Positions 434 to 29,429 of a stretch of DNA of 48,643 nt are shown here, piece after piece. The DNA is from a virus. The stretch spans positions 1-48,643 of the IMG/VR virus record IMGVR_UViG_3300003873_000380, one strand, 5' to 3'. The position numbers were made by a program, and so were the translations under genes. Below the pieces are notes generated by a model. That model was not told the DNA's origin. It saw only the letters and a program-made list of their open reading frames with translations, and made no database searches. Every line of letters starts with the position of its first letter. Within the stretch, counting starts at the first letter, position 1.

Positions 434-3400
434 ATGGCTATTGGCGCGTTTTCGGTTTCGAGTAAATCAGTTGCAAGCACATCTATTTTTGATGGAACTT
501 TAAAAGCTAATGTCTTATCTAATGCTTCGATAATAGCTAATATAACAACTGAGATAAGATTATCTGCTTCATTACTTAGCTATTCAAGTTTTAACTCTCA
601 ACTATTGATAGGCGATTTATTTAAAGCTAACGCGACAGCAATCGCAACGATTAGCGCGTCATTATCAACTTCAATAACGATTAGATGCGCATTAAAATCA
701 TCATCAAAAATAAATGCATTTCTTACTGATAAGCCGCTATTAATTGGCAATAAAAAAGAGGGGTACATTTTATCTAACGAGGTTAAAAAACTATTTAGCA
801 ACATAACCTACCCTGCTTTATTTTATATTAAAAACCTAACATCAACAGGTGTATCATTTCCTGAAATAACAGGGCTATATATTCAAAGTAGCAATAATTC
901 AGGTGATGGATTAACTATTGAAATAACTAATTTTGACGCGCTATTAAGACTTTCGGCAAGTATAGAATTATCAAGCATTGATTATTATAAAATACAGATA
1001 ACGCTTATTAAAGAGGGATTATATTATAAAGATACATCCCTTGATATGACCTCGCCACTAATAAAGCTAAACGGAAACACACAATATACAGTCATAAAAG
1101 GTGGACAGTATATAGAGCTAGGTGCTTATGCTATTGATGATAGAGATGGAACGCTCCCTGTATTAATTACGGGTCGAGTCAATAACAAAAAAATAGGCAA
1201 TTACCCACTTACTTATACAGCAACAGATAAATCAGGGAATACATCATCCGTAAATAGGATGGTAGACATTATCAGCGCAACATTAACAAGTAATTTATTT
1301 TCGTGGGGAAATGGCGGTGAAAATAAGTTATTAACAAGCAATAATATTGATATTTTTACGCCTACGCCAACAAATACGCAAGACAATTATATTATTGTAG
1401 ACTCAGGTATTAATTTCTCTATTGCAATTAAATCAGACGGCACACTATGGGGTATAGGAGTCAATGATTTAGGGCAATGTGGGGTAGGGCATACAAAGAA
1501 AGTTACTGTAAAAACTCAGATAGGAATAAAAACGGACTGGGTAAGCGTGTCGTGCGGAAAAGCACATACTTTAGCACTAGACAGCCAAGGGGTAGTATAT
1601 TCTTGGGGAGATGGCTCGTTAGGTCAGTTAGGTACAGGGGATTTTTATAATAAAGATGCTCCCGTAAAAATATCAATAAACGCGCTATCGGTATCGGCTG
1701 GGTTTTTACACTCAGTTATACTAAATAAAAATCATTCAATATCAGTTTTCGGTGATAATTATTATGGTCAATTAGGTAACGGAATTACTGATAAAAAACC
1801 AGTAAACAAACTGATAAAATTAACTAAGTCATGGTTAAAAGTTGGAGTAGGTGAAAATTTCACAATAACTTTAGACTCAAAAAACGTTGTTTATGGAGTA
1901 GGGAGCGGAGCAAGCGGTCAATTAGGCTATGATAATAACGCCAATCCGCACGGGAACTATGCGCTTTATCCATTAACAGACTCAAATATAAACGACCCAG
2001 CAATTAACCCCAATTTAGATGGATGGAAAGATTTAGCGGCAGGTAGGCGGTTTTGTGTTATTTTGCATAAAACTACTGGGTTAGCTTATGTGACGGGTCA
2101 AAACACATACGGACAAGCAACTGCACCAACTGGAACGGATAAAACATTATTTACCCTCGCAGGGGGTGTGGTATTTAAAAATATCTTTGCTGGTGTTGAT
2201 TACTGGTTTGGGCTAACTGATACGGGTGTTCTTTACGGGATAGGTCGTAATTCAAATAGACAGTTATCTTTAGGAAACAATGTCAATACAGATATTCTAT
2301 TGCCATGTACAGCACCAACAATAGGCGTATGGTCTAAGGTCGCTTGTGCATATAAACATACCTTAGCATTGTCAACCAATGGCGATATTTACGTTACTGG
2401 AAGCGCGGCACAGGCTACAACTTTCGGAACATCAAAAGCATCATTTACACAAATAGGACTAGCAGGTGGATGGACAGATATTAGTGCAGGTCGGACGCAT
2501 TCACTCGGCATAAGAAATGGAAAAGTCTATGCTTGGGGTGATAATCTTTACGGTGAGTGTTCAGATGTAATCCCTGTCACTGGAACAAGTATTATTACTG
2601 AGATAATGACAGCCATAACATTAAACTCAACGCCTTTAAGTGTTCATGCTGGTACATACGTTTCATACGTATTAATGACTAACGGAGCTGTTTATTCTTT
2701 TGGTAGTAACGTGGTTTACAATACCGTGCTAGATGCAACGCCTTTATCGTGTGGCAAATTGGGTCGAATTATAACTGGTGATTTTGATGCAGTGCCAACA
2801 ACTATTATTGGTAAATATAAAGATATTTCTGTTTTATATGACTCTATTTATGCGATTGACTCATCAAGGCAGCTATCGTCATGGGGATATAACAGGAATT
2901 TCCAGCTTAATACAGGGAGAGTTTATAGCACAGTAGCAGGTCATACGACCGAGGGAGAAAACCAGAATATCCCACTAATAGCCTATTCAGATTACAACTG
3001 GTTAAAAATATCGGCTGGAATTTATCACACAATGGGTATTAGATACTCACACGTTGGAGATGCGCACGGTAGTATATGGGGTTTTGGCGATAACTCAAGG
3101 AGACAGATTTATAAAGCTGTTGTAAAAAAATATAACGAACCAGTAAAAATAGGCGGCTCTAATAACTGGATTAATATATCTTGTAGTTTACATAATTTAG
3201 CAATTCAATCGGACGGGATTAATAATAATCAAGGCGTATTGTATGCGTGGGGCTACTCATACTTTAATCAGTTAGGATTAATCGGGATAACCGATAAATC
3301 TACACCGCAATTAATAAGCAGTGATTTATTTAACAAAGTCAGTGCAGGTTATCATCATTCATTAGTTGAAAGAAGCGATAACGCGGTTCTTGCTTGTGGT

Positions 3401-7074: not shown

Positions 7075-8769
7075 ATGACTAATATGTTACAGCGTCAATA
7101 TCACAATAAAAACACTAAGGAAATGGATAATTTTGTTCATTCTTTAGAAAGCGTTGCTGCTACTGAAAACGGTGGCACTTTTGACTCAACAGCGGCAACA
7201 GAATTTATGGTATCAGGATTAAGCCAAGGAGCGGCTATCCCTGAAAAACTACAAATTATTTTAGATGAAGCGGATGCACAAGGACAAGCAGCTTTAGCCA
7301 ATGCGATTTTAGACGGTATCGCATCTTATAAGTTAAAACATGGTGAAGCCCCTGCATCGGACGTTATCGAGAGCGCGGTAGCTCTTGGTTATTCAACAAC
7401 CGACCACGCTCACGCACAGCATGGTCATCGTAGCCTTGCATTGGATAGTATCGCATCGACTAACGCATCAGCAGCTACAGGGTTACAACCAAACCGTGCT
7501 GCGGTCTCAATTATTCACACTATTACAAGTGCTATTCCTTTCGCTCATTACTTGCCAGCCGATATAGGTTCTAATGAAGCGCGTTTAGCCATTCTAACAC
7601 ACCAAGCAGGTAATGAGTACGGTTCTTATTTAGTTAGTGATTTAATGGATGGAGTCGCATCAGGTGATGCTTATATTTCATCTTCTCGCACACACGCGAC
7701 AACTAACGCGGCTGGCGCACATTCTGGTCAGCTAACATCAGTACAAGCAACCCCTGATACTTGTGCGGCAGTTGGCGGAAATGTAGTTGCGGTTAATTTA
7801 TTACGTGGTCGGTCTAATGTTTTTGTTAATGGTCAATTAGTAGCACAAGAAGTTAGCAGCACAGGTACAGGAGCATCAACCGTTTCAGGGGCAGTTACAA
7901 TTTTAGGTGTTACCTATCAAATTGGCGGCACAATTAATACTGATACTGGTGTTATTGCACTAACATCTACACCTGCTTTAGCTAATTCCGTACCTGTTAT
8001 TGTTGAGGGTTTTATTGATTATGAGCGTATGCCAACTCTAACGCCTACTATCGTATCAAGCGTTGAAGTATTTAGCCTTTACGCTAAGCCGTGGCGTGTC
8101 ACTACTACTCAGACTATTGATAGCCGTACACAAATGAGTAATGAACTGGGAATTGATCCTTATAGTGAGGGAATTAGAGCAGTTCAGGTTCAATTTGCAA
8201 ACGAACGTCATTATGAAGTATTGCGTAAAGCAATGCGTTTGGCTGCAAACAATACCGCTACTTTTGATTTTAACTGGGCTGCACTAGGCACATATAAAAA
8301 ACGTGCCGATATTTGGCAGGATTTTAACTCAGTTATTGGTGCTATTTCACAGCAAATGGCAAACGATACATTGGGTTTTGGTGTAAGTCATATCTATGTT
8401 GGTCAACACGTAGCTTCTCAATTATTATCATTACCTAGCAATTTATTTGTGCAAAGCGGAACTAGCGAGCGAGCTGGTATTTATCGCTTAGGGTTACTAT
8501 TTGGTCGTTATCAAGTGTACTTTACTCCTAAAGGGCTTACCGATGGCGTTGCTAGTTCACAAATTCTATGTATTGGTCGTTCTCAAGACGTATCGCGCAA
8601 CCCTTTTGTACTAGGTGACGCAGTAGCTCCTATGGTTGTTCCATTGGCTACTAATGCAGATTTACAACAAGGTGCTGGATTTTACGCCCGTAATTTTACA
8701 GACGTAAATAAATATACTCCATCATCTAAAGCGTGTGCATTAATCACTGTTATTAACATGGGCTTATAA
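7075..8769 (+). CDS. Probable major capsid protein, 564 aa
   Basis: A large soluble protein in G/C-richer codons than its neighbours, which suits a highly expressed gene. The N-terminal third is helical and charged and may be a scaffold-like arm. The middle (about residues 220-325) is Gly/Thr/Val-rich with TGTGASTVSGAVTILG and looks like an inserted beta domain. After it comes a segment with MSNELGIDPYSEGIRA and long helical stretches, as in HK97-fold shell proteins. It has its own transcript start region after a terminator and is followed by a small gene and the tail sheath. Ribosome-binding site TAAAGG lies about 8 nt before the ATG. The call rests on size, position and composition, not on a diagnostic motif. 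No prohead protease is seen next to it. Confidence 0.6.
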   Translation: MTNMLQRQYHNKNTKEMDNFVHSLESVAATENGGTFDSTAATEFMVSGLSQGAAIPEKLQIILDEADAQGQAALANAILDGIASYKLKHGEAPASDVIESAVALGYSTTDHAHAQHGHRSLALDSIASTNASAATGLQPNRAAVSIIHTITSAIPFAHYLPADIGSNEARLAILTHQAGNEYGSYLVSDLMDGVASGDAYISSSRTHATTNAAGAHSGQLTSVQATPDTCAAVGGNVVAVNLLRGRSNVFVNGQLVAQEVSSTGTGASTVSGAVTILGVTYQIGGTINTDTGVIALTSTPALANSVPVIVEGFIDYERMPTLTPTIVSSVEVFSLYAKPWRVTTTQTIDSRTQMSNELGIDPYSEGIRAVQVQFANERHYEVLRKAMRLAANNTATFDFNWAALGTYKKRADIWQDFNSVIGAISQQMANDTLGFGVSHIYVGQHVASQLLSLPSNLFVQSGTSERAGIYRLGLLFGRYQVYFTPKGLTDGVASSQILCIGRSQDVSRNPFVLGDAVAPMVVPLATNADLQQGAGFYARNFTDVNKYTPSSKACALITVINMGL

Positions 8770-15529: not shown

Positions 15530-16231
15530 CTACTGTTTTTTTTGTGTCAACTTTAGGCTGTTAGCAAAAATAATTAAATCTTCTTTAACTGAGCTATAAA
15601 TATCCTTATAGTTACGCCCTAAATCCATATATTTTTTTATGTTATTTGCTGCAAGCCTTTCTGCAAGCATTAACTCACTCAGCTCATAAATACCCATTTC
15701 ATCTCTGATTTTAGGGTCTTTTTGAGCCATCAATCCAAGTGCTTTATATGATGCGTTAGTAATATGCTTATAATAAAACTTAGCAGATTTACTGCCTTGT
15801 TTTGTAGCGTATTCTACAAAGTCTTTTATTGCGTCCGTCTCTTCTTTTCTTGCAGTTTTTCCAATAAGCCGTGTAGAGTTCCATTCAATGTCGCTTGCAT
15901 TGGTTTCTACTTTTAACAATCGCCTTTCCATCTCATAAAAAGCTGCATTAAACTTAACTTGCCATTCAAAAGCTTTCTTGCTTTTTAATCGCATAGACAC
16001 TAATGAGAAAAATTCACGACTCATTATATAGACATCATAATCAGTTCCTCGATAGTGCCGTTTTTCTTTATAGTATTTAGGAGGGACGGCATCCCCTGTT
16101 AAATTATCAAGCTTATCAATAACTTTTTTAGCTGTATTCATAAAGTCTTTATGCTGCATTTCAAACTTCTTAGCGACAATATGACTATCAACCCAAACTT
16201 CATTATTTTTTACCTCTACTAACTTATTCAT
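15530..16231 (-). CDS. Rha-family phage regulatory protein, 233 aa
   Basis: The N-terminal domain (residues 1-100) matches Phage_pRha: VEVKNNEVWVDSHIVAKKFE, HKDFMNTAKKVIDKL, YDVYIMSREFFSLVSMRLKSKKAFEWQVKFNAAFYEMERRL. The second half is helical and ends with a Lys-rich tail, of the kind attached as a C-terminal domain in antirepressor-type proteins. Rha proteins are DNA-binding regulators found mainly in temperate lambdoid and P22-like phages. The gene is on the strand opposite to the tail genes around it and splits hub from spike, so it is an inserted cassette. AGAGGT lies 7 nt before the ATG, inside or next to a perfect 12-bp inverted repeat (16243-16278). A strong terminator-type RNA follows. 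Confidence 0.8.
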   Translation of the reverse strand: MNKLVEVKNNEVWVDSHIVAKKFEMQHKDFMNTAKKVIDKLDNLTGDAVPPKYYKEKRHYRGTDYDVYIMSREFFSLVSMRLKSKKAFEWQVKFNAAFYEMERRLLKVETNASDIEWNSTRLIGKTARKEETDAIKDFVEYATKQGSKSAKFYYKHITNASYKALGLMAQKDPKIRDEMGIYELSELMLAERLAANNIKKYMDLGRNYKDIYSSVKEDLIIFANSLKLTQKKQ

Positions 16232-16376: not shown

Positions 16377-16916
16377 ATGCAAGGTAGATACCCAGCAATA
16401 ATTACATCCTATGACCAAGTTACGCGGCTATGTAAGGTAAAATTACCGTTTTTAACAGACGGCAGTAGTGATGATTTAACCGCTGAAATAGAGTATTCAA
16501 TCGGTGACGGTCTTAATACCGAAATACACATAAAGCCAAACGATGCAGTTTGGGTATCATTTATTGGCGGTGACGCAAGCTATCCAATTATTACAGGCTA
16601 TCGAAACCCACATACACACAACCAGATTGATTGGCGTAGGTGGTATCACGAAAATATTGAGTTAAAGGCAAACAACACGCTTATACTTGATGCTAAAGAA
16701 ACGATTACTGAAACGACTAAAATAAGCAGTTTAACCGCTCAAAAGCGTATAATTAAAGCAGATGTAGAAATAACGGGTAATGTTATAATAACAGGCAACT
16801 TATCCACCATTGGAACACTTACCAATAACGGAACAAATACAGGCAGCACGCATATACATCCTCAAGGCTCAGACTCTCACGGGGACTCCCAACAAAATAC
16901 AGGTACACCGCAATGA
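16377..16916 (+). CDS. Baseplate spike protein (gpV-like), 179 aa
   Basis: Starts MQGRYPAIITSYDQVTRLCK, typical of the OB-fold of gpV/VgrG-like spikes; GDAVWVSFIGGDASYP-type residues follow (NDAVWVSFIGGDASYPIITG). A repetitive beta-helix (residues about 100-155, with TAQKRIIKADVEITGNVI and GTLTNNGTNTG) leads to the tip, where STHIHPQGSDSHGD provides His residues that in P2 gpV and phi92 gp138 bind the apical iron. The trimer pierces the outer membrane at contraction, which implies a Gram-negative host. No clear Shine-Dalgarno is seen; the stop overlaps the next start. Confidence 0.85.
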   Translation: MQGRYPAIITSYDQVTRLCKVKLPFLTDGSSDDLTAEIEYSIGDGLNTEIHIKPNDAVWVSFIGGDASYPIITGYRNPHTHNQIDWRRWYHENIELKANNTLILDAKETITETTKISSLTAQKRIIKADVEITGNVIITGNLSTIGTLTNNGTNTGSTHIHPQGSDSHGDSQQNTGTPQ

Positions 16917-17398
16917 ACAAAAATCTATTATTTTCTTACAGTGATATGTCAAACAAAGACAAAGCCACTAAAGCCGTTACGCGGTATTTTACTCGTGCAG
17001 GGGTTAAGGTTGTATCGAGTGAAGTATCAAACAAGGAAAAAACAACGTCAGGCGTAAAATACAAAGAAATGACTTTAGCTTTTAGTGACTCGCAAACTGT
17101 TACACTAAAAATTAAATCAAGTGGCGATATTTTTAATGTATTAATTAATAAAAAATTAGTCCCCATTAAAAACCAAGATAACCACATTAAAGCGATTGCA
17201 GAAATTACAAAGATTTTAAACAGTGGGCGTGATAAATTCACATCAAAGCAAGCTAAATTAAAAGTTGCTATCCCTGCAAGTGCAAGAACAGCAAGAAAAA
17301 ATATTTATAAAGTATTGGTTGAACAACGCGATACACTGAAAGAATTGGTCGCAGAAAAAAGAACTGAATTAGAAACACTAAAAGGCGCAGGAGCTTAA
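16913..17398 (+). CDS. Dar-block associated protein, 161 aa
   Basis: Overlaps the spike stop by 4 bp (ATGA) and precedes the DarA-like gene by 2 bp. The protein begins MNKNLLFSYSDMSNKDKATK, has a beta-rich middle (YKEMTLAFSDSQTVTLKIKS, then VLINKKLVPIKNQDNHIKAI) and a coiled-coil-like C-terminus (LVEQRDTLKELVAEKRTELE). In my recollection such proteins travel next to DarA-type genes in phages, but I cannot name a family. The tight spacing suggests that it is made and possibly packaged with the Dar-like proteins. Confidence 0.6.
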   Translation: MNKNLLFSYSDMSNKDKATKAVTRYFTRAGVKVVSSEVSNKEKTTSGVKYKEMTLAFSDSQTVTLKIKSSGDIFNVLINKKLVPIKNQDNHIKAIAEITKILNSGRDKFTSKQAKLKVAIPASARTARKNIYKVLVEQRDTLKELVAEKRTELETLKGAGA

Positions 17399-17400
17399 TA

Positions 17401-20400
17401 ATGAAACGTATTTACTGGAACAAGAATAACGACCCAATTAAACACGACATTGCATCGGTTTTATACAGCATTAAGAGCCATGATGGAAAAGACGGGTTAA
17501 TAATGGACTCAATTACTGTCAATGAAATTATGGCGGATAGTGATGGTCTTATTGCATTTGACTCTTTAATTGTGCCTTACGCACGATTAGAAAAGCGAAT
17601 GAAAGTAATTGCTCGTGTTATGGATAGATCCAGTAAAGAATTAGATGTAAACGAAGTAAACCTAACCGCGCCTTTCAAGCGTAACGGCACAACTCAAGTT
17701 GCGGCTGTATTTGATTTATCAGACGGTCAGACTATTACCATTTTCTTTCATAACCCAGATGTAAACCCTAAGAAACTACAAGCAGGTGATGATTTAGTAA
17801 GTTGGAAATGGTTACTTAATAAGAAAGACATTACTATCGTTGTTGCCCCTGAAAAAGGAAAGGATTTAGATGTCCATTCAGTATCACAGCGCATTATGAA
17901 GCTTGCGGAAAAGAACAGCGCGGCTTTTGCTAAGGCGAACGCCAATAAAGCAGAAAAAGCAAAACAGGTAGATGATATTAAGGTTGAAATAGAAGACCTT
18001 AAAACAGAATTAACAGCACTTGATAAGGAGATTGAGCAAGCTAAGGCAGAAGCGGAAACAGCTAAAACAGCAGAAACAGCGGAAAACGAAGTAAAAGTAT
18101 ACGATAAGATTGACTCTATTACCTTGCTATCAAGTGAAAGTAATCTTGATGAAAATATCAAACTAAATAGTTTTAATGAATTGCAGAAATTAATGCTTAC
18201 TCAGTACCCTACTGAAGCTGATCTTCCAAGTAATCATTATGATAAATACCGTTTAGATGTTGTAGTTAAGGATAGTAACGGGGATAAGAAAGGGCTGGCA
18301 GTTGGTGGTACTGGGCGCATAGATGTTGGTGCCAGTGCAGGAGATTTTAACCCATTTATTAAAAACCTATCGGCATATATTTCTAATTTTTATCAAGGAG
18401 AAAAAGAACAGGATGGAGAGCGTTATATTGTAAATATTCCTATTGAGCCAGACTTTAATAAAAATGAAGATCCACTTATTGAAGATGAAGTACAGCCAGA
18501 GGGAATAGAAAGCACAGTAAAGACAGCTAAGGGAACAAAGGTTAAAACTGGATTTTCTGTTATTGAAGCGGATAATTTAATTGCTTCACATGACGCGCAA
18601 GGTAATGTAAACCCAGATTATCCGCAGGAATTACAGCCACGAGATAGAAGTCGAGAAACATCTCAAGCATGGGTAATAAAAACATCTAAAAACTTAGACC
18701 CAGACAGTTTAGGCAAAACTACACGCGCGGATAGTGGCGCGCCTATTATTGGTACTGATAGAGTAGTTGAGTCTGGTAACGGGCGCACTATTGCCATTAA
18801 AGAAGCGTATCGCACAGGTAATGCAACCGAATATAAAGACTGGCTGATTGAAGAAGCGAGTTATTTTGGTTTAAATGCGGATAAAATAAAGGCAATGAAA
18901 AAGCCTGTTTTAGTCCGTATTAGAACGGATGAAGTAGACCGCTTTAAGTTTGCAGTTGAAGCTAATCAAGATGATAAGTTAGCCATGACAGCAACAGAGA
19001 AAGCCGCATCAGACGCAAACAGACTAGATGTCGATATGCTATCTAATTTATCAGAAAATGGCGATTTATTATCAAGCAGTAACAGCCAATTTGTAAGTAA
19101 GTTCTTACAGTCGTTAGGTGACACGGAAGCAGCTCAATATATGACTTCAAGCGGCAAGCCTACTTCTTCATTAATCGCCCGTATGCAAGCGGCTATATTC
19201 GCTAAGGCTTACAATGACGATAGACTATTAGAATTAACCGCTGATAGCGCAAAGCCTGAAATTGCCAATATTCTAAACGCATTAAATACCGCTGCTCCTG
19301 ATTTCGTTTTAGCGGCAGAATATAACAAGGATGAACACGAGAAAGCCACACGCGATTTAACAACAAGCATAAAAACATCATTAAGCAAGCAGTCAACGAA
19401 TGCAATTATTGAAGCAATTAATGTTTTAAACGATGCTAACAACCACAAAATGACCGTTGAAGAATTTATTAATCAAAATGATTTGTTTGGTGGTGTTAGT
19501 CCTGATGTAGCGGCAATGGCATTATTTATTAAAAACAATAACCGCAGTGCCAAAAGAATGGGCGTAGCGTTTAAGGAAATGGCTGATTTTATCAAGCGAG
19601 AGGGTGAACATAGTCAATCGGATGATTTGTTTGGTGATAATAACCCTGCTGAATTTAAAGATATTATTACAGCCGTTAATCGTAAATTAGAAAAAGAATA
19701 TGGAGAGGGTGAATTTTTAATTAAGAATGATGATTTATTTGATTTAAAAAGAGAGCCAGAGCCAACGCCAGAAAATGCACCTATCGACCCAGACGCAACT
19801 AAATATAATGACAAAGAATTAAAGCCGCCTCGTAACAAATATGCAGAAAGTTTACTTAAAAAATTAAAAAAAGCTCAAGATGATTTTGAATTAGTCAATA
19901 ATGATGGAAGAGGACGTAATATTGCATTTACTGGAACAAGTAAAAAATCATCAAAAAATTATCTTAATTCATGGCGTGAAAAATTAGGAAAAGCTGCTGA
20001 AAAATCATCTAATCTTGGTGCTATCTATAAATTTGTTAATGGAAAAGTTATTAATCGTGACAATATAACAGAATTAGCAAGAACTATTGACCCTACAGAT
20101 AATAACGGGTGGGTAAATGATATAAATCAGGTATATAGAAACGGATATTTAAGCGATGACCTAGATATTGTTATGAGAAAAATTGTATATTCTGTAAGCA
20201 AAAACTCTTCAAAAGCAGATTTTGTATACACGAGTCCACGAGGTGATTATACAAAGATAAGCAATGATAAAAGTTTTTCTTATGAAGAGCAAGATACTGA
20301 ACATAATGGATATTCAAAGCCAATAGATAAAACCGATCAATTTATCGACCCTATCGACCCAGTAGCCAAACAAAACGTAAGCAATGCAGGTCTAAGTAAA

Positions 20401-21390
20401 GCACTGGAAAAAACTGTATTAAAACACCTAACTGAAAACCCAGATAGCAAAACATTACCAAGTCCTAAAGCATTAAGAATTATTGGGGAAAACACTACTA
20501 AGGCGTTAGGAGCAGAGCTTGAAAGTAACGGGTTTACGCAAATATTAGACGCTGATAAAATAAAAGTATGGGCTAATAAGTCGGTAGAAATAGAGGTAAG
20601 AAAAAACACACCTCATAGTACAGGTTTTTCATTGAGAATTACTATTGAAGACTATTATAGGCATACATCCAAACCAATTTTAGACTCTACAGCAACCATA
20701 GAAGAGGCTAAGTCATGGAAAGGTGCTTTGCCGTTTGATTTAGAGGTTAAGCCGTTTGTTATGGATGTTATGAGTACGGTTGTTAATAATAAAATCATAA
20801 ATAAAGACAAACAAATAACAATATCTGAATTTGATGATGCTATTCATGCTTTATGGCGGATTATTTCTAATAAAATTGAATCTGCAACAGATAACTATAA
20901 TATAAGTTATCAAGATGGCGGTATTGTTTTGGTTTTTAGTTATAGACATGGCGATAAAACAGGGGAAGCATTAAAATTATCGTTCTCTGGTATTTTTAGA
21001 AAAGGTAAAAAATCATATTCTATATTAAACCTTACCTCTCATCCTAATGAATACGATAAAGTATATAACGGAAAGATAAAGAAACATAAAAAAGTGTTTT
21101 TTGATGAAACTCTCAATGGTTTTATTTCTTCTTATTCTGAAATTGAAAATAAAGTATTATCTTGGTTAGGTATTGATAAAATAAAGCAAGATGAACCTGA
21201 ACCAGTGGAAACCACAGACTTTAAGCCTGAAATTGAAGTGTTATTAAAAGAGAATGACTCGGAAATTTTAGATAAAAAAGTGGATGATATTTTTGAGCGT
21301 GTAGAAAAAGCTGGTTTGATGAGCGAATATGAAGCTGATTTAGACAAAGTGCTTAATCATTTAGACGAGTTACTAAATGAGATAGGATAG
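17401..21390 (+). CDS. DarA/DdrB-like antirestriction virion protein with ParB-like domain, 1329 aa
   Basis: Residues about 1-180 fit the N-terminal domain of DarA-type 'defence against restriction' proteins (ITIFFHNPDVNPKKLQAGDD, LVSWKWLLNKKDITIVVAPE, VSQRIMKLAEKNSAAFAKAN), followed by a Lys/Glu coiled coil (about 185-225). Residues about 410-560 hold a DdrB-like ParB domain: PRDRSRETSQAWV, then RVVESGNGRTIAIKEAYRTG. The last 500 residues have no family I recognise. In P1, DarA and related proteins are carried in the head and are needed to package and use DarB, which shields incoming DNA from type I restriction. Here the gene lies between spike and portal, directly before the DarB-like gene, with a terminator between. 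P1 spreads these functions over several genes, so this may be a fusion. Confidence 0.75.
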   Translation: MKRIYWNKNNDPIKHDIASVLYSIKSHDGKDGLIMDSITVNEIMADSDGLIAFDSLIVPYARLEKRMKVIARVMDRSSKELDVNEVNLTAPFKRNGTTQVAAVFDLSDGQTITIFFHNPDVNPKKLQAGDDLVSWKWLLNKKDITIVVAPEKGKDLDVHSVSQRIMKLAEKNSAAFAKANANKAEKAKQVDDIKVEIEDLKTELTALDKEIEQAKAEAETAKTAETAENEVKVYDKIDSITLLSSESNLDENIKLNSFNELQKLMLTQYPTEADLPSNHYDKYRLDVVVKDSNGDKKGLAVGGTGRIDVGASAGDFNPFIKNLSAYISNFYQGEKEQDGERYIVNIPIEPDFNKNEDPLIEDEVQPEGIESTVKTAKGTKVKTGFSVIEADNLIASHDAQGNVNPDYPQELQPRDRSRETSQAWVIKTSKNLDPDSLGKTTRADSGAPIIGTDRVVESGNGRTIAIKEAYRTGNATEYKDWLIEEASYFGLNADKIKAMKKPVLVRIRTDEVDRFKFAVEANQDDKLAMTATEKAASDANRLDVDMLSNLSENGDLLSSSNSQFVSKFLQSLGDTEAAQYMTSSGKPTSSLIARMQAAIFAKAYNDDRLLELTADSAKPEIANILNALNTAAPDFVLAAEYNKDEHEKATRDLTTSIKTSLSKQSTNAIIEAINVLNDANNHKMTVEEFINQNDLFGGVSPDVAAMALFIKNNNRSAKRMGVAFKEMADFIKREGEHSQSDDLFGDNNPAEFKDIITAVNRKLEKEYGEGEFLIKNDDLFDLKREPEPTPENAPIDPDATKYNDKELKPPRNKYAESLLKKLKKAQDDFELVNNDGRGRNIAFTGTSKKSSKNYLNSWREKLGKAAEKSSNLGAIYKFVNGKVINRDNITELARTIDPTDNNGWVNDINQVYRNGYLSDDLDIVMRKIVYSVSKNSSKADFVYTSPRGDYTKISNDKSFSYEEQDTEHNGYSKPIDKTDQFIDPIDPVAKQNVSNAGLSKALEKTVLKHLTENPDSKTLPSPKALRIIGENTTKALGAELESNGFTQILDADKIKVWANKSVEIEVRKNTPHSTGFSLRITIEDYYRHTSKPILDSTATIEEAKSWKGALPFDLEVKPFVMDVMSTVVNNKIINKDKQITISEFDDAIHALWRIISNKIESATDNYNISYQDGGIVLVFSYRHGDKTGEALKLSFSGIFRKGKKSYSILNLTSHPNEYDKVYNGKIKKHKKVFFDETLNGFISSYSEIENKVLSWLGIDKIKQDEPEPVETTDFKPEIEVLLKENDSEILDKKVDDIFERVEKAGLMSEYEADLDKVLNHLDELLNEIG

Positions 21391-21406
21391 GCAATAATAA
21401 TAACCA

Positions 21407-21436
21407 CACAAAGCCCTTTTAACGGGGCTTTGTTTT
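21407..21436 (+). terminator. Rho-independent terminator after the DarA-like gene
   Basis: CAAAGCCC pairs with GGGCTTTG around a short TTTTAACG loop and is followed by TTTT. It lies between the DarA-like stop at 21390 and the DarB-like start and would limit read-through. A TATAAT at 21445-21450 overlaps the next ATG and could be a chance match. Confidence 0.75.
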
Positions 21437-21448
21437 AAGTGGTGTATA

Positions 21449-24400
21449 ATGCAAGCAAGTTACTTTTACGGAATACCTATGATTGATTTTAAAACAAGAC
21501 GACTACATCAAAAAAACATAATTAAGCAGAATAAATTATTAAAAACTGATTTATCGCTTATGGAAAAACGAAAGGCGTTAAAGTCTAAGTTTGAGTCTTT
21601 TAAATTGCTTGGTCTAGTTGCCAAGAAAGACACTAGCGGAATTGGTCTTAAATCAAGCGGAAAAGTTACCCGTGAAACGATTAACGCAAAAACAAAAGAA
21701 ATAACAGATCAAATTATCGCTGGAAAATCACCAGAAAGCCTTACTCAAGAAGAGCTTGATACCTTAAAGCAATATTCAGGCAAAGGCGGTTTAACTGATA
21801 ATAGTCAATATGAATACTATACGCCTACACCCATTGCTGAGGGGGTATGGGATTTACTCAAAGAAAACGGATTTAAAAACGGTAATGTACTAGAGCCATC
21901 CGCAGGGGCAGGGGTGTTTTTATCAACTAAAACAGACGGGGTTAAGATGACAGGGGTTGAAGTCGACCCTATCGGTGCAACGGTTAATCAGGTTTTGCAC
22001 AAAGATGATGATATTCTTAATCAATCGTTTGAAAAATTAGCCGTTGAAGCACCAGATAACCATTTTGACGCAGTCATTGGTAATGTACCTTTTGGAAAAG
22101 CCCGTGGCGCGTATGCTAATGATGACCCTGAACATAAAAATGAGAAACAAATTGAGCGATATTTTATTGATAGAATTATTGATAAAACACGAGAGGGCGG
22201 ATTAATTACCCTTGTTGTTCCTATTGGGGTTATCGGTAATACTCAAGCAGTATGGAAGAAGTGGAGAGCTAAAATAAGTCGTAAAGCCGAATTTTTAGGT
22301 GGTCATAAATTGCCATCTAAAACATTTGGAAAACAAGGTACTGATACGGTAACGGATATTATCGTATTGCGTAAACACTCGCATAACCTACTTGATAAAA
22401 TTGACGGCTTAGACAGCGATTTATTGAAAGAAAGTAATGTTTTATGGGATGAGTTTATACAAGGTAAATACTGGAAAGGGGAAGGGAAGCGATATATTAA
22501 AGGGGAATACATCCCTAAAGAAAAAGGCGATAGATTTAGCCATGAGCAAGTTATCCCTAAAAATGGTGAAACAAACGAAACCATTAAAAAGCAGTTGGCA
22601 GTTAAATTCAATTCACGCATTAACTGGGGGCTTGTTGATGCCGCAGAACCAGTTATTAATTATTATGCAACGGGCGATAGAAGAGCAATTAATGGGGTAC
22701 TGCATGAATTTGACGGTGAACATTGGGACGCAGTTAATTATGAAGTAGAAGAAAATGTAATTAATCAGGACAAATACGGTGCAGAAAGTATTGAAGCACT
22801 GGAAAGTATTTTATCTAATCCTGAAAGTATGCTTAGTCTCAGTGCTAAGCAGGCATTGAGTATTTATGAAAATTATCCTAATTTATTAAGTAAGAAACAA
22901 AAAGATATTATCCAGTTTGCTAACTCTCAAAAAGAAACCGCTATTGAACAGGCATATAGAGGTAGCTTGGTTGGTGGGATTATTACTGATTATAGAAAAA
23001 ATAAAGATACCAATGAAACAGACAGAGTTACCGCGCTAATAGAGAAAGAGTTGTCAATATACGGAAACCCTCGGCATAACAAGGGTATTGCTCTAAATGG
23101 TGCTGTATCTCGTGACTTAGGCGTGTTTATCGGGGTTGTTGATGACAAGGGAGAAATCAAGCAACGACTAACAGAGCAAGAAACGGATGCAACAGGTTTT
23201 AAAGATAATAATATTCTATCAATTATTGAGCACCAATTAAAAAAATCAAAAGACGATGTTATATCGCTAGATGATATTAAGGCATTGTATAAAGGTGAAC
23301 GTGAAATAAGTAACTTTAGCGATATAGTTGATATTAAAAACTTAGCTATTACACCTAGCGGATTTATTACCACTACTGAAAAGTATTGTTCAGGTGATAT
23401 TTATAAAAAGATGAGTGAATTATCGGCTGTAATGGCAGGTGAAAAAAATAATAATGTAAGGCAGAAATTACAACAACAAATTGATTTAATGTTATCTAAA
23501 GTAAAGAAAGAAAAAATAGAAAACATTAATTTTGGTTTGCGTGATAAATGGATAGATGCAAAATATAAAGAAGAGTTTTTAGAATTATCTGAGTATTCTG
23601 GTTTTTACTTTGATACTAATGTTACAGAGTGGAATTATAACGAAGCAGGTATTTTTAATCGTGACTCTTTTAAAACAAAACAACTAAACTATTATATGAA
23701 CGGTCACTCTATTGGCTTTAATGTAAGGGAAAATAAAAACGAAACAAAAGAGGAGCGCATAGCAAAACTTAGGGTTTTTATTAATGAGCTAGAGGATAGT
23801 TTTAAGTCATTTATGCAATCTCATGTTGATAGTGATAGCTTAGAAAATACTTACAATATGACTTTTAACGGTTATGTTGAGCCAGATTATGACGATAGTG
23901 ACTTAGATTTAAAAGAAACGTCTGGGGCGATACCCCCACATTGGTATCAAAATCAAGCCGTGCGTAAATTATCTATTGAGGGTAGCGGAATTTTAGGGCT
24001 GGATGTCGGACTTGGAAAGACAGCAACAACCCTTGCATATAGTGCTTATGATAGACAAATGGGACGTTCTAACAAGCATTGTATCGTAGTACCTAATTCT
24101 GTACTGGCTAATTGGTACAATGAAGCTAAGAATTTTTATGGGAATACAGACAATATCTTGTTTGTAGGGTTTAGTCCTAAACGTGATAAAAAGACCAATG
24201 AAATAATAAACGAGCCTATTCTTGATGAGAACGGAGAACACCAAGAAAACCCACATACAGGTAAAAAAGAGTACCAGGATATTCTAGTTAAAGACAGTAA
24301 GGCAGTTTGGATAAAGAAAATGCAAGAAATACCTTTTACTGATGCTCAAGTCGTGATTATGACTGAACAAAAGTATGAGGTTATCCCATTGAAAAGCGAG

Positions 24401-27400
24401 TTTATCAATAAATACGCGCAACAATGGGTTGATAAAAGCATGATTAGCAATGCTAATTTTGAGAAGATGAAAAAGGGATATGATGAAGCTGTTGAAAAAA
24501 ACAAATTAGAGGGGCAATTTTCAGATACGGGCATAGAAAAAAATGAAGCTATTCCATTTTTTGAAGATATGAACTTTGATCGTGTTATTGTTGACGAGGG
24601 GCATCGCTTCAGGAATAGCTTTAAAATTCAAGACGGTGACACCGCTAAATTAGCTTACTTACCTAATCCAGCCATTGCGAAAAGAGCCACAAATATGGCT
24701 ATGAAGTCCGCTTATTTAAGAGATAAGTACAATGGAAAGGGGACTATTTTATTAACTGCAACGCCTGTTTCAAATAGCCCTATTGAAATTTTCAATATGC
24801 TATCCCTTGTTGTTGATCAATCAGAATTTGAAAAGATTGGAATTTATACAGCGGATGACTTTGTGCGCCAATTTAGTGATATTGGAATGGTTGATAAAAT
24901 CACTGTAAAAGGTGATATTGAAGTAAGAGAGGGGATTGTCGGGTTTAAAAATCTAAACGCATTGCGTAGTTTGTTCCATAAATACGCAAATATGAAAGAT
25001 GCGAAAGATGTAGACCCTAACGGGGACAAAATGCGCTTACCTAACTCTATTGAGATGTTGGATAACGTAGATATGACCGCAGAACAAGCTGCCTTATATG
25101 ATGATTTAAGGTCAGAAGCTAAATTGTCATCCAACCCTAATAATATAAAAGAGGGTAATGCTAGACCGTTATTCGCAGTTATTCGTGATATGGACAGGGT
25201 TACTGCGGATTTAGATATGTATCATGGTATAACCACCTTTATTTTCAAAAAAGATGATAAAGATAAAGTTAGGAAAATGGTAGATAGTTTGCCTAGTAGC
25301 ATTACCGAGAAAGGGATAGATGAGTACGGTGAAAAATATAACTTTGAAGTAGCTAAAGAAAGCGAAATAATCGAGGAAAAAGAAGCGGTTATTTATAAGG
25401 CGATTAATGGCTTTGAAAAAGCAGTAATGAGCAGCCTTAAAAAGTTTGGGATTGATTATGTAAACCATATTTTATCACCTAAATACGCAAAGATGATCGT
25501 AAATATGCAAAAAGAGCTGGATAGCAACGGAAAGCAGATTGCATTTACCGAAGAAAAGTCACAGCACGTAAAAATTCAAAATATTATTAAAAATCATCTA
25601 CCTGTCAATATCGAGCAAGTGGGCATTATTAATGCTGAAACGGCTGAGGGCGAGAAATTACAGCAAATAGCAGATAAATATAATCGTGGTGATTTTAGAA
25701 TTATCGTTGCTAATAAAAAAGCAGAAGTAGGCGTAAATCTACAAAAAGGTACGTCCGCAATTCATCACTTAACGCTTCCGTGGAACCCTGCAAGTTTACA
25801 ACAACGTAACGGACGAGGGGTAAGACAAGGGAATAAACGCGAAAATGTGAGTGTGTATTATTATCAAGCTAAAGGCTCTTTTGATGAGTTTAGATTAGAC
25901 TTATTGAAAAACAAAGGTAACTGGATCGCTAATCTAATGGATAAAAATAGCGATAATGACAAAGCAGAAAACAGCGAGGCAATGGGAGCTATCGACCAAG
26001 CCGCTTTATTATCTGATAATAAAGAAGAGTTCTTAAAGAAAATTAACCAACAAAAAGCGGATAAAGCTAAAAAAGAAAAGGAAGAGAAGAAAAAACGCGC
26101 CATCATTAAGTTTAAATCTTTACAGAATTTAAGTAGGCAGTTAAAAAAGTATGAGCATGATAATGATAATAAAAAGATAGATGAAATTAAAAAGCGCATT
26201 GAAGCTACAAAGTTAAATTTAAAAGGAATTGCACGGAGTGATGACGCGTCTCTTACTGTTGATATGATAGATAATGTTGAAAACATTTATTTTAATAAAA
26301 AGAATACGCCTATTTATGTTGGTGGTTTTTATAAAGATGGAAACCGTGTATTTGTTATAAATAAAGGTAATTTAAGGGATGGATATTATGTGTTTTATCT
26401 TGGCTCTTTTAGGTCTAGTGATAGTTACCTCGGAGGAACATCAGATAATATAAAAGATGCCATACAATTAGAAATAGAACCAAGTGATTTAGAAAAATAT
26501 AAGATAATTTCTGGGGTAAGTGGCGTATTAAATTACACGGATATACCTAAAAAAATAGATAAAGACTTTTTCTTGGAGCATCTAAATATTTTAAGACTTG
26601 ATGCTTATGATAATGTTATTTTTAAAAAAGAAGATAATTACTACATTGAGATGGCTGGAAGTTTAACACCAGACAAATCAAAAGGATTGGTATACCCTGA
26701 TAAGAACGATAAAAAAGTTATTGAGTTCTTAAAAGATGAGTATATAAAAACGAGCAAAAGTAGTAGGGATGCACATATGAGTATTTTTATGCATTTTTTT
26801 GGCAATGATTATGCAAAAGTAATATTAGAGGGGCAAAAATTATCACGAAAAGAGGATGTTACCGCCAAAGTTACTGAGATTATTAACAATAAACTAAAAG
26901 AAGATAAAGCATCTATTGAGTTTATTGATGACCTTAAAAAAGCTAAAAACGCGCTTTTTTTAATAATTAATAGCCGTAATACTGTTCAACGCTTATTAAA
27001 TGAATGGTGGAAGCAGGAAGAATTTGTTGATAACGTCGATGACTCATACTATCTTATTCATGCCATTATTGATTTAAAAAAAATAGAGGTTAAAGATTTA
27101 ATTAGAAAATATGAAGATGAAGCGGCTAATAAAAAGAAAGAAGAAATAAAGCAAAGCCCTAACTATAAAGAGCTATCAAAAGATATAATTGAAGCCTATG
27201 CTGAACATAGTATTAAGATATTTTTTAACGATGAAGAGGTTAAAACAGAACCTAAAGGACGGTTTAAAAGCCAGACTTACGCGCCATTTGAACGTGTTTT
27301 TATGAAAGATAACGAGGGTTTTAGTGGTCTTTTGTATGGCGATAGACCAACAATTAAGGATTTTGGTGCTAAATTTTGCAGTGGGGTAGTTCAGGGAGAT

Positions 27401-27475
27401 GATAAATACGGAGATAGCACTTGGCACTTCCCAGCCAATACTAAATTATCTGAAATGCTACAAGAAATAAGTTAA
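21449..27475 (+). CDS. DarB-like antirestriction protein: N6-adenine methylase plus SNF2/SF2 helicase, 2008 aa
   Basis: Residues about 125-230 form an adenine methyltransferase: YYTPTPIAEGVWDLL, motif I VLEPSAGAGVFLS (about 147-159), and the catalytic NVPFG (about 212-216, the NPPY-type motif). A helicase follows: Walker A ILGLDVGLGKTATTL (about 850), DEGH box VIVDEGHRFRNSF (about 1048), TATPVSNSP (about 1105) and a C-terminal helicase lobe with QQRNGRGVRQGN (about 1452). The last 450 residues are Lys-rich and unassigned. The layout and length resemble P1 DarB (about 2250 aa), which acts in cis on injected DNA against type I restriction. The start is uncertain: the first ATG has a poor ribosome-binding site, and ATG at 21479 (MIDFKTRR) with GGAA upstream is a good alternative. 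Confidence 0.85.
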   Translation: MQASYFYGIPMIDFKTRRLHQKNIIKQNKLLKTDLSLMEKRKALKSKFESFKLLGLVAKKDTSGIGLKSSGKVTRETINAKTKEITDQIIAGKSPESLTQEELDTLKQYSGKGGLTDNSQYEYYTPTPIAEGVWDLLKENGFKNGNVLEPSAGAGVFLSTKTDGVKMTGVEVDPIGATVNQVLHKDDDILNQSFEKLAVEAPDNHFDAVIGNVPFGKARGAYANDDPEHKNEKQIERYFIDRIIDKTREGGLITLVVPIGVIGNTQAVWKKWRAKISRKAEFLGGHKLPSKTFGKQGTDTVTDIIVLRKHSHNLLDKIDGLDSDLLKESNVLWDEFIQGKYWKGEGKRYIKGEYIPKEKGDRFSHEQVIPKNGETNETIKKQLAVKFNSRINWGLVDAAEPVINYYATGDRRAINGVLHEFDGEHWDAVNYEVEENVINQDKYGAESIEALESILSNPESMLSLSAKQALSIYENYPNLLSKKQKDIIQFANSQKETAIEQAYRGSLVGGIITDYRKNKDTNETDRVTALIEKELSIYGNPRHNKGIALNGAVSRDLGVFIGVVDDKGEIKQRLTEQETDATGFKDNNILSIIEHQLKKSKDDVISLDDIKALYKGEREISNFSDIVDIKNLAITPSGFITTTEKYCSGDIYKKMSELSAVMAGEKNNNVRQKLQQQIDLMLSKVKKEKIENINFGLRDKWIDAKYKEEFLELSEYSGFYFDTNVTEWNYNEAGIFNRDSFKTKQLNYYMNGHSIGFNVRENKNETKEERIAKLRVFINELEDSFKSFMQSHVDSDSLENTYNMTFNGYVEPDYDDSDLDLKETSGAIPPHWYQNQAVRKLSIEGSGILGLDVGLGKTATTLAYSAYDRQMGRSNKHCIVVPNSVLANWYNEAKNFYGNTDNILFVGFSPKRDKKTNEIINEPILDENGEHQENPHTGKKEYQDILVKDSKAVWIKKMQEIPFTDAQVVIMTEQKYEVIPLKSEFINKYAQQWVDKSMISNANFEKMKKGYDEAVEKNKLEGQFSDTGIEKNEAIPFFEDMNFDRVIVDEGHRFRNSFKIQDGDTAKLAYLPNPAIAKRATNMAMKSAYLRDKYNGKGTILLTATPVSNSPIEIFNMLSLVVDQSEFEKIGIYTADDFVRQFSDIGMVDKITVKGDIEVREGIVGFKNLNALRSLFHKYANMKDAKDVDPNGDKMRLPNSIEMLDNVDMTAEQAALYDDLRSEAKLSSNPNNIKEGNARPLFAVIRDMDRVTADLDMYHGITTFIFKKDDKDKVRKMVDSLPSSITEKGIDEYGEKYNFEVAKESEIIEEKEAVIYKAINGFEKAVMSSLKKFGIDYVNHILSPKYAKMIVNMQKELDSNGKQIAFTEEKSQHVKIQNIIKNHLPVNIEQVGIINAETAEGEKLQQIADKYNRGDFRIIVANKKAEVGVNLQKGTSAIHHLTLPWNPASLQQRNGRGVRQGNKRENVSVYYYQAKGSFDEFRLDLLKNKGNWIANLMDKNSDNDKAENSEAMGAIDQAALLSDNKEEFLKKINQQKADKAKKEKEEKKKRAIIKFKSLQNLSRQLKKYEHDNDNKKIDEIKKRIEATKLNLKGIARSDDASLTVDMIDNVENIYFNKKNTPIYVGGFYKDGNRVFVINKGNLRDGYYVFYLGSFRSSDSYLGGTSDNIKDAIQLEIEPSDLEKYKIISGVSGVLNYTDIPKKIDKDFFLEHLNILRLDAYDNVIFKKEDNYYIEMAGSLTPDKSKGLVYPDKNDKKVIEFLKDEYIKTSKSSRDAHMSIFMHFFGNDYAKVILEGQKLSRKEDVTAKVTEIINNKLKEDKASIEFIDDLKKAKNALFLIINSRNTVQRLLNEWWKQEEFVDNVDDSYYLIHAIIDLKKIEVKDLIRKYEDEAANKKKEEIKQSPNYKELSKDIIEAYAEHSIKIFFNDEEVKTEPKGRFKSQTYAPFERVFMKDNEGFSGLLYGDRPTIKDFGAKFCSGVVQGDDKYGDSTWHFPANTKLSEMLQEIS

Positions 27476-27485
27476 GGGGTTTAAT

Positions 27486-27905
27486 GTGAAATATTACTAT
27501 TTTAAAGAAGAAGATTTAAAGCCGCTCATTAAAGAGGGGGTAGCATTATCCCCTAATAAGCATCAATGGATGATAAGCGTATTAACGTCAATGCGTGACA
27601 TGGTGACTAAAGACCCTATTAATTATCGCTCTTTCGGTATGTATTGGTGGTCTATTAAGTCTTTAATGATTAATCAAGGGCTACTTAGTAATCAATATAC
27701 TGTTGATAACGATATTGTTAAAGAGGTATCGCTAGGTAGTGAATTGCTTGATGTTGCAGCCGCGTTATCGTTCCATCAGCAATCATTCGACAGTCAATCA
27801 TCTAAAAATAACTCAAGTTCCGTTTTTAATAAAGACGGGGAAAGTATGGATTATATGTTATTAGATGATGATTTTGAGATGATGATTTTTATTAACAATA
27901 AGTAG
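27486..27905 (+). CDS. 139-aa protein upstream of portal, unknown
   Basis: A GTG start at 27486 has AAGGGG 7 nt upstream, overlapping the DarB-like stop. The protein is aromatic-rich at first (MKYYYFKEEDLKPLIKEG), then WMISVLTSMRDMVTKDPINY and a Ser-rich linker, and ends acidic (YMLLDDDFEMMIF). No membrane segment is clear. Immediately before the portal gene (6 bp gap), so a head or packaging accessory role is possible, but nothing in the sequence proves it. Confidence 0.55.
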   Translation: MKYYYFKEEDLKPLIKEGVALSPNKHQWMISVLTSMRDMVTKDPINYRSFGMYWWSIKSLMINQGLLSNQYTVDNDIVKEVSLGSELLDVAAALSFHQQSFDSQSSKNNSSSVFNKDGESMDYMLLDDDFEMMIFINNK

Positions 27906-27911
27906 GACAAT

Positions 27912-29429
27912 ATGGGTATTTTTAGCCAGCTTGGAACGTCAAAGAAAAAGTGGAATAAAAAAAACATTGAACCTGCAAATGGCATTACGCCTGAAATAGC
28001 CTTTGATTTTGGATCAAGCCCTACAACTATTGCTACCTTATTAGGGCAAGGAAAGAAACAAGCTAAGGCGAGGCAAGTTGTCTATCAAAAATGGTCACAA
28101 ATGGAGTCGGACGCTATTTGCTCCAATGCTCTTTCGCTGCTTGTAACATCGGCACTGGGGGGGCATGAAACCACGGGCGATATTGTTTTTATTGAAAAAA
28201 CATCATTAGCTGATAAAGATAAGAAGCTAGGTAATATAGTTGATGAAATTAATGCGGATTTATCTGAATTACTTAATAAAAATGCTTTTAGCCTTGCTTA
28301 CACAGGGGCTGCTTTTGGTGATGCTTATGCGAGGATTTACGCTAATAAACAAGATGGAGTTATTGATTTATATACGGATGAATTAGTTCGACCGCCACTT
28401 ATACAGCCTTATGAGCAAGGCAGTAAAACTATTGGGTTTGCGGTCTATACAGGAACAGATAATTTTGAGCGTTTAACTATTGAACAAATGGCACGTTTAA
28501 AAATGCCACGTACTCAATGGATACCTCAAATTGGAGTTGTTGAGAAATCAATACGCCTTGCAATTACTGAAGATGATTTATCAAAAATCCCTATCATGCC
28601 AGCAATGGCTGGAGGTTCTTTGCTATACCCTGCCGAAGATGCTTATGATAATCTATCATCGGCTCTTATGGGTATTGTAGGTCAACGGTGGATGGACTCT
28701 ATAGACGAGCAAATGATAACATTAAATATGCAGGGGATGAGCTTAGACCAGCAAAAAGCGTTTTCTACATCTATTGCAACTATGCTTAAAAAGTCTAAAG
28801 ACCTATCGGCTTTAGCGGTAAAAGATGGTGTACCAATTATGGAGCGAATACGCCATATTATCCCTATCAATAATGAAAAGCAATTAACTCAAGTTGCAGG
28901 TAATGCAGGGCAAACGGGGAGAAACGCAACTATTAGCATCGAGGATATTATGTTTCATGCTAAGTTGTTATCTGGTGCAATAGGTGTTGATTTATCTATG
29001 CTTGGCTTTTCTGAAATCCTAAGCGGTGGACTTGGGGAGGGTGGATTTTTTAGAACGTCTGCACAAGCGGCTGAAAGGGCGCGTGTGATTAGAAGTTCAC
29101 TTGCAGAATGTATTAATCATATCATTGATATTCATACGTTAAACAAATATGGTTATGTGTTTACTAAAAAAGAAAGACCGTTTAGGATTAATTTTTATGG
29201 GTCAATTTCTGCTTTAGAAGCAGAAAAAGAAGAAACTAAGCAATCAACTATGAACTCAGGGTTATTGCTTGTCCAAGCTATGCAAGCAATGAAAGAAGCA
29301 GGAGCAGACAGTGATATGATGAAACAGTTTTTAAGTAAGCAAATGATGATTGATGAAGAAGAAGCCGAATTGTATTCTAAGATAGCAGAAAAAGAAGAAG
29401 AGCCGCAAGAGCAGGAAGAGCAAGAATAA
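27912..29429 (+). CDS. Portal protein, 505 aa
   Basis: Length and layout fit a phage portal: an N-terminal wing (VVYQKWSQMESDAICSNALS), a central segment with FSLAYTGAAFGDAYARIYAN and VDLYTDELVRPPLIQPY-like sequence, a helical region after residue 240, a stem/crown with AEAARARVIRSSLAE-like helices (QAAERARVIRSSLAECINH), FGSISALEAEKEE-type motif (FYGSISALEAEKEETKQS), and an acidic Glu-rich tail. The portal is the dodecameric DNA gate of the head. Unusually, it lies about 19 kb from the capsid gene, behind the Dar-like block, and no terminase is next to it in the window. The stop overlaps the next ATG. Confidence 0.8.
   Translation: MGIFSQLGTSKKKWNKKNIEPANGITPEIAFDFGSSPTTIATLLGQGKKQAKARQVVYQKWSQMESDAICSNALSLLVTSALGGHETTGDIVFIEKTSLADKDKKLGNIVDEINADLSELLNKNAFSLAYTGAAFGDAYARIYANKQDGVIDLYTDELVRPPLIQPYEQGSKTIGFAVYTGTDNFERLTIEQMARLKMPRTQWIPQIGVVEKSIRLAITEDDLSKIPIMPAMAGGSLLYPAEDAYDNLSSALMGIVGQRWMDSIDEQMITLNMQGMSLDQQKAFSTSIATMLKKSKDLSALAVKDGVPIMERIRHIIPINNEKQLTQVAGNAGQTGRNATISIEDIMFHAKLLSGAIGVDLSMLGFSEILSGGLGEGGFFRTSAQAAERARVIRSSLAECINHIIDIHTLNKYGYVFTKKERPFRINFYGSISALEAEKEETKQSTMNSGLLLVQAMQAMKEAGADSDMMKQFLSKQMMIDEEEAELYSKIAEKEEEPQEQEEQE

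What the first reader, a model, noticed from the sequence alone, without database searches (positions are those of the whole stretch)
16913..27475. About 10 kb devoted to a P1-like Dar antirestriction block in a different myovirus
A small protein, a 1329-aa protein joining a DarA-type N-terminus to a DdrB-like ParB domain, and a 2008-aa methylase-helicase like DarB form a compact set between spike and portal. In P1 the corresponding functions use more genes (DarA, DdrA, DdrB, Hdf, DarB). The compact fused layout and the placement among virion genes suggest a minimal, injected Dar system.
Basis: partly seen in the sequence, partly recalled or inferred. Interest (0 to 1): 0.65.

Follow-up and report, generated by a model that had tools for sequence, protein, structure and literature searches.

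The report
P1-type antirestriction block, cargo inside DarA
This phage carries the same kind of presumably injected anti-restriction kit as phage P1, but one kit protein (DdrB) is built into the middle of another (DarA), and about a hundred relatives suggest that DarA is a carrier with two fixed ends and an exchangeable middle, whose end piece also sits on other proteins of the kit.

Summary
DdrA and the DdrB metallopeptidase were not found. The virion is not unrelated to P1: capsid, sheath, portal, tube and baseplate genes have P1 or Xanthomonas phage Rb1 homologues. The layout is not unique; eleven further non-redundant loci have Hdf-DarA-DarB-Ulx in that order.

The new part is DarA itself. 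In 110 non-redundant DarA proteins the capsid-binding N-module is constant, nearly all end in a conserved ~60-residue C-terminal module, and the middle varies. Near-identical phages differ by a clean internal cassette. In the window the DdrB core lies between the two ends. The C-module also ends about 16 otherwise unrelated proteins of the same blocks; in 17 whole bacterial genomes its model matches nothing but DarA. No Pfam model was found on it. I read DarA as a carrier with exchangeable cargo and the C-module as a candidate loading or ejection tag. Packaging, injection and antirestriction are inferred from P1, not shown here.

The parts
16377..16916 (+). baseplate spike gene, left neighbour of the block
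   Evidence: PHROG baseplate spike 2.7e-10
16913..17398 (+). Hdf homologue (161 aa)
   Evidence: phrog_1620 Hdf-like 1.2e-33, Pfam DarA_N 6.6e-18; phmmer to P1 Hdf 9ukm_H 1.1e-8; 54% to Rb1
17401..21390 (+). DarA chassis protein carrying a DdrB core (1329 aa)
17569..18147 (+). DarA N-module (residues 57-249): hexon-binding domain plus long helix
   Evidence: AlphaFold2 model without P1 in the alignment; best PDB match P1 DarA 9ukm_I, Foldseek 2.7e-9, VIA Z 16.3, rmsd 6.8, 190 aligned, P1 residues 70-281
18499..19710 (+). DdrB core (residues 367-770) including ddrB-ParB 377-508
   Evidence: 43% to P1 DdrB, 46% to D6, 50% to ABMM1; Pfam 3.2e-35
19723..21192 (+). orphan cargo (residues 775-1264), no family; residues ~982-1131 shared with a few other DarA proteins (L058, L059, L068)
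   Evidence: low-confidence model
21193..21384 (+). DarA C-terminal module (residues 1265-1328), predicted three-helix bundle
   Evidence: HMM trained without the window, E 1.8e-13; pLDDT 91-98 over the helices
21449..27475 (+). DarB homologue (2008 aa), N6-adenine methylase plus SNF2 helicase
   Evidence: 32-33% overall identity to P1 and D6 DarB; NVPF, GLGKT, DEGH and QRNGRG motifs conserved; SNF2 5.8e-18, Helicase_C 5e-9
27486..27905 (+).
   Evidence: phrog_1629 Ulx-like 1.9e-22; P1 Ulx blastp 7.9e-10
27912..29429 (+). portal gene, right neighbour of the block
   Evidence: phrog_1497 3.1e-161; 29% to P1 Prt
7075..8769 (+). P1-type major capsid protein
   Evidence: 49% to Rb1 MCP, 24% to P1 gp23

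Best explanation
The block encodes a P1-type Dar kit. Hdf and the DarA N-module would pair on the inner face of the capsid; DarA would carry a DdrB core as built-in cargo instead of recruiting DdrB as a separate protein; DarB and Ulx would be loaded after them. All would enter the next host with the DNA and shield it from type I restriction. DarA works as a chassis: an N-terminal capsid-binding module and a C-terminal three-helix module stay constant while the middle is swapped between phages. The C-module is likely a portable tag for loading into, retention in, or exit from the head, because unrelated proteins in the same blocks end in it. Shown here: gene content, architecture, constant ends, cassette exchange, tag specificity, and the P1 DarA fold of the N-module. 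Inferred from P1: packaging, order of loading, injection, antirestriction. Inferred by me: the tag function.
For: Homology of all four genes to P1 Hdf, DarA/DdrB, DarB, Ulx. The N-module model matches P1 DarA. P1 cryo-EM puts 55 DarA-Hdf pairs on the capsid wall (PMC12810830); six Dar proteins are virion proteins in P1 (PMC9024508). C-module: a type I model hits 86 of 110 DarA proteins, and a type II model built without the window hits it at 1.8e-13. Pairs with 75-94% identical N-modules have 150-1,200 unshared middle residues, most with shared C-ends. L075 and L077 have 93-95% identical flanking DNA around a non-homologous 987 against 882 bp cassette. About 16 non-DarA proteins end in the C-module, 0-12 residues from the stop, all 3' of DarA; none in shuffled or reversed ORFs. 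In 17 whole bacterial genomes the model hits once in 14 (at DarA) and nowhere in 3. Embedded DdrB cores form one clade, while the DarA tree needs 8 changes, at least 4 on well-supported branches.
Against: No experiment on this phage; the host is unknown. In P1, Hdf, DdrB, DarB and Ulx are packaged although no C-module was detected on them, so it is not a general packaging signal in P1. Types I and II of the C-module are joined only through intermediates (the P1-group model hits L205 at 1.3e-6 and L185 at 1.4e-5); a direct profile comparison was weak. The penton-binding part of P1 DarA was not recognised in the window protein (residues 270-370 low confidence).
Confidence: 0.6

Rival explanations
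1. Ordinary P1-type Dar block. The C-module is simply DarA's own tail domain with a structural role (oligomerisation, Hdf contact or DNA binding), and the neighbours that end in it are old DarA duplicates that lost the N-module.
For: P1 DarA has the module too; all tagged neighbours lie next to DarA, as duplicates would.
Against: The tagged neighbours were recognised by the last ~60 residues only and several carry other domains (LPD3, DUF2958, DarA_C, DdrB). Some of these domains also occur in DarA middles, so duplication is not excluded.
Confidence: 0.3
2. The embedded DdrB core and variable middle are not antirestriction but injected effectors against other targets (nuclease or host take-over), as in the polyvalent proteins of Iyer et al.
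For: Relatives carry PBECR RNase-like, MutS-I, InPase and LPD3 domains in the middle or front; Iyer et al. place DdrB-ParB among novel ParB-like DNases (PMC5512222).
Against: In P1, DdrB is listed as aiding DarB addition to the capsid (PMC9024508, Table 1); DarB is present in the window.
Confidence: 0.3
3. The DarA-DdrB fusion is a sequencing or assembly artefact, or a degenerate block.
For: None found.
Against: Single 1329-codon frame, DarB motifs intact, and about 45 loci with DdrB inside DarA, 20 of them distinct at the core.
Confidence: 0.02

Closest known systems
Phage P1 Dar system (Hdf, DarA, DdrA, DdrB, DarB, Ulx)
   Same: Hdf, DarA N-module, DdrB core, DarB and Ulx homologues; DarB lies near the portal gene in both
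   Different: DdrB core embedded in DarA; no DdrA found; no HEXXH metallopeptidase; one co-directional run instead of two separated gene groups
Xanthomonas phage Rb1 (PQ569993)
   Same: Closest named virion (MCP 49%) and same block order with Hdf, DarA, DarB, Ulx
   Different: Rb1 DarA has an N-terminal InPase domain and another cargo, no DdrB; several genes lie between Hdf and DarA, and a separate HEXXH protein gene lies between DarA and DarB
Phage polyvalent proteins (Iyer et al. 2017, PMC5512222)
   Same: Large multidomain phage proteins with DarA-N, DdrB-ParB, InPase, LPD and methylase-helicase domains, variable architecture, presumed injected
   Different: The passages read there describe DarA-N as a domain but no constant C-terminal module and no two-ended DarA chassis
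DarB N-terminal capsid targeting sequence of P1 (PMC9024508) and the T4 internal protein CTS cited there
   Same: Short terminal element that directs cargo to the head
   Different: The P1 DarB signal is N-terminal (first 30 residues); the module here is C-terminal, predicted as a folded helical bundle, and its function is untested

Membership tests
P1 Dar system | Hdf and DarA homologues | tested here: met
P1 Dar system | DdrB homologue | tested here: met
   core residues 367-770, embedded in DarA; the C-terminal metallopeptidase part is absent, no HEXXH
P1 Dar system | DdrA homologue | tested here: not met
   no DdrA hit in the window with a P1/D6-based profile; a diverged one, or one elsewhere in the phage, cannot be excluded because the window is a fragment
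P1 Dar system | DarB and Ulx homologues | tested here: met
P1 Dar system | Dar proteins incorporated in the virion and injected | not testable with these tools
   needs virion proteomics
P1 Dar system | protection against type I restriction | not testable with these tools
   needs plating assays
P1 Dar system | DarA N-terminus cleaved by prohead protease Pro | tested here: inconclusive
   56 residues precede the position equivalent to P1 residue 70; no Pro homologue was seen in the window, which is a fragment
P1-type virion lineage | homologous MCP, sheath, tube, portal and baseplate proteins | tested here: met
Polyvalent proteins | several defence/effector domains in one large late-gene protein | tested here: met
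   DarA_N plus ddrB-ParB in one 1329-aa protein among virion genes
Polyvalent proteins | metallopeptidase domain for self-processing (common, not universal, so not decisive) | tested here: not met
   no HEXXH in the four window Dar proteins

The most novel reading that the evidence does not exclude
The ~60-residue C-terminal helical module is a portable head-loading or ejection tag: P1-type phages attach it to proteins that they inject, and DarA is the main carrier with an exchangeable middle.
Probability: 0.35. Interest if true: 0.8.

Novelty: new variant of a known kind. Interest (0 to 1): 0.6.

Why it matters
P1 DarA is known as a capsid-bound antirestriction protein, and the part of it that holds the C-module (within residues 383-639) is unresolved in the cryo-EM structure. 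If its relatives are two-ended carriers with exchangeable cargo, the catalogue of middles is a ready list of candidate injected phage effectors, and the C-module offers a direct test of how P1-type heads choose their internal proteins.

Tried and rejected
Single-protein scan for close relatives of the 1329-aa protein in viral contigs: none. Relatives of the orphan cargo and C-end in viral contigs or phage records: none. Hypothesis that P1 DdrA ends in the C-module: not supported (hits at E 0.02-0.03 lie in its N-terminal half; profile comparison negative). Hypothesis that DarB, DdrB, Ulx or Hdf of P1 carry the module: not supported. Fold search of the cargo plus C-module: only common helical-bundle matches (best Z 6.8 over 57 residues, pieces of a tRNA synthetase and CorA) and no viral match with E below 0.001, so no function can be read from the fold; the cargo part had low confidence and was barely tested. 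Counting Hdf next to DarA by distance was too strict and was replaced by gene-order counting. Piya et al. 2017 (PMC6011833), the primary Dar loading study, was not held; its results are cited through later papers.

Full report
OBSERVATION. The three ORFs are intact at the stated coordinates. 16913-17398 is an Hdf homologue (PHROG 1.2e-33), and the solved P1 Hdf chain is its best PDB sequence match (1.1e-8). 17401-21390 has DarA_N (4.1e-41) and ddrB-ParB (3.2e-35), the latter inside a complete DdrB core of about 400 residues that is 43% identical to P1 DdrB, 46% to D6 and 50% to Acinetobacter phage ABMM1. 21449-27475 is DarB: methylase and SNF2-helicase motifs (NVPF as in P1 itself, GLGKT, DEGH, QRNGRG) are all conserved. 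So homologues of five of the six known P1 Dar proteins are present in four genes; DdrA was not found, and there is no HEXXH metallopeptidase.

SURROUNDINGS. The rest of the window is a P1-type virion: MCP 49% to Xanthomonas phage Rb1 and 24% to P1 gp23; sheath, gp21, PmgG, tail tube, spike, portal, Tub and BplA have Rb1, P1, D6 or ABMM1 homologues. The phrase 'a different myovirus' is therefore right for the species and wrong for the lineage. The window is a 48,643-base virus record, 35.6% G+C, host unknown; terminase and prohead protease were not seen among the proteins scanned.

RELATIVES. Profile scans with the DarA N-module found 261 loci in IMG/VR (80 kept) and 45 in GTDB genomes; scans with the DdrB core found 461 (80 kept). 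The kept loci are the best-scoring ones, so the counts below are not natural frequencies. Records of the genome hits are named as Burkholderiales, Nitrosomonas, Halomonas, Pseudomonas, Moraxella, Psychrobacter, Acinetobacter, Avibacterium and a Desulfovibrio MAG, among others. Spike-Hdf-DarA is the common left part of the block (57 of 91 non-redundant loci with a labelled gene upstream); Hdf-DarA-DarB-Ulx in order occurs in 12 non-redundant loci including the window. About 45 fetched loci have DdrB inside DarA. The layout is thus typical of a large family.

DARA HAS TWO CONSTANT ENDS. An N-module model, predicted without P1 sequences, finds P1 DarA as its best PDB match (Foldseek 2.7e-9; VIA Z 16.3, rmsd 6.8, 190 residues; window 57-249 on P1 70-281), the next unrelated match being Z 6.8. 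P1 residue 70 is where the modelled part of P1 DarA starts; residues 1-69 are thought to be cut off (PMC12810830). At the other end, an iterative profile started from the last 90 residues of Rb1 DarA finds the same ~60-residue module in 86 of 110 DarA proteins of 400 to 2,060 residues, at the C-terminus in all but one. A second type, in the window, P1, D6 and about ten others, is recognised in the window at 1.8e-13 by a model that did not include it; a P1-group model reaches L205 (1.3e-6) and L185 (1.4e-5), the latter also a type I member, which joins the types. The direct profile-profile comparison of the two types was weak, so their unity rests on intermediates. The module of the window is predicted as a three-helix bundle with pLDDT 91-98. 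It is not Pfam DarA_C, which covers P1 411-472. Pfam scans of 64 DarA proteins and 10 other tagged proteins named no family that recurs in the way the module does.

THE MIDDLE IS EXCHANGED. DarA pairs whose N-modules are 75-94% identical differ by 150 to 1,200 middle residues with no detectable similarity, most with shared C-ends. The clearest case is L075 against L077: 92.8% and 95.4% identical DNA on both sides of a 987 or 882 bp stretch that shares nothing significant at protein level; one holds LPD3, the other does not. The InPase domain sits before the N-module in most of its carriers and towards the C-end in seven. DdrB cores inside DarA form one clade including the window (SH-aLRT 89), while on the DarA N-module tree presence of DdrB needs 8 changes, at least 4 across well-supported branches. 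That fits one entry of DdrB into DarA followed by exchange or repeated loss; both trees are quick searches without bootstrap. Other middles and fronts include LPD3, PBECR1/3, MutS-I, LPD1 and DUF2958.

THE C-MODULE IS ALSO ON OTHER PROTEINS. Among 11,218 ORFs of the fetched loci about 16 proteins without DarA_N carry it, always 0 to 12 residues from the stop and always 3' of DarA; shuffled and reversed ORFs give none (two further hits, L198 and L209, lie at masked or broken DarA genes and are not counted). L025 and L035 have three genes each that end in it, DarA included. Over 26 whole phage contigs there are 36 matches; those I compared with the loci fall in Dar blocks, and 8 contigs have two or three matches within a few kilobases (one across the contig's ends) (DarA members of the training set match by construction, the neighbours do not). 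Over 17 whole bacterial genomes the model matches exactly once in 14 and never in 3. One of the tagged neighbours is a separate DdrB-type protein (L113).

MECHANISM. Known in P1: 55 DarA-Hdf pairs line the capsid, DarA is processed at its N-terminus, Hdf and DarA load first, then DdrA, DdrB, DarB and Ulx, and the Dar proteins are gone from heads that have lost their DNA (PMC12810830; PMC9024508). Inference for the window: the DdrB core, being part of DarA, needs no separate recruitment and goes in at DarA's copy number; DarB and Ulx follow as in P1. The C-module's confinement to Dar-block proteins, its terminal position and its appearance on otherwise unrelated proteins make a loading or ejection role the simplest reading, but P1 DdrB, DarB, Ulx and Hdf are packaged without a detectable copy, so it cannot be the only route.

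VERDICT. A real P1-type Dar block in a P1-type phage, common in layout. The embedded DdrB is one instance of a wider rule about DarA that I did not find described. Cargo variation as such is established for polyvalent proteins (PMC5512222); the constant C-terminal module and its spread to neighbouring genes are what I could not find, within the open-access papers held here.

Noticed in passing
window 15530-16231 (-): Rha-type phage regulatory protein (Phage_pRha 6.3e-11) on the opposite strand, inserted in the virion gene run between a tail gene and the spike gene.
   Followed up: partly
window 47531-48337 (+): PAPS-reductase-family protein (6.3e-25) at the window's right end.
   Followed up: partly
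window 434-6993 (+): 1417-aa RCC1-repeat protein with an Ig-like domain and a 768-aa protein without PHROG match, upstream of the capsid gene; possible tail or surface proteins.
   Followed up: partly
L195 9947-14617 (DarA residues 1203-1335); L006 16802-20467 (DarA residues 28-159): The InPase domain occupies opposite ends of DarA in different phages: before the N-module, i.e. in the part that would be cut off if processing is as in P1, or towards the C-module.
   Followed up: partly
L084 11463-11771 (+); L032 12031-12441 (+): Small proteins that look by eye like the DdrA N-terminal ~50 residues followed by the C-module (weak in L084, 8e-11 in L032): DdrA-like proteins may be minimal tagged proteins.
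   Followed up: partly
L007 and L008: DarB is split into two ORFs of 908 and 1246 aa.
   Followed up: no
L037 9419-12424 (DarA residues 736-803 of 1001): The only DarA found where the type I C-module is not at the C-terminus; about 200 residues follow it.
   Followed up: no
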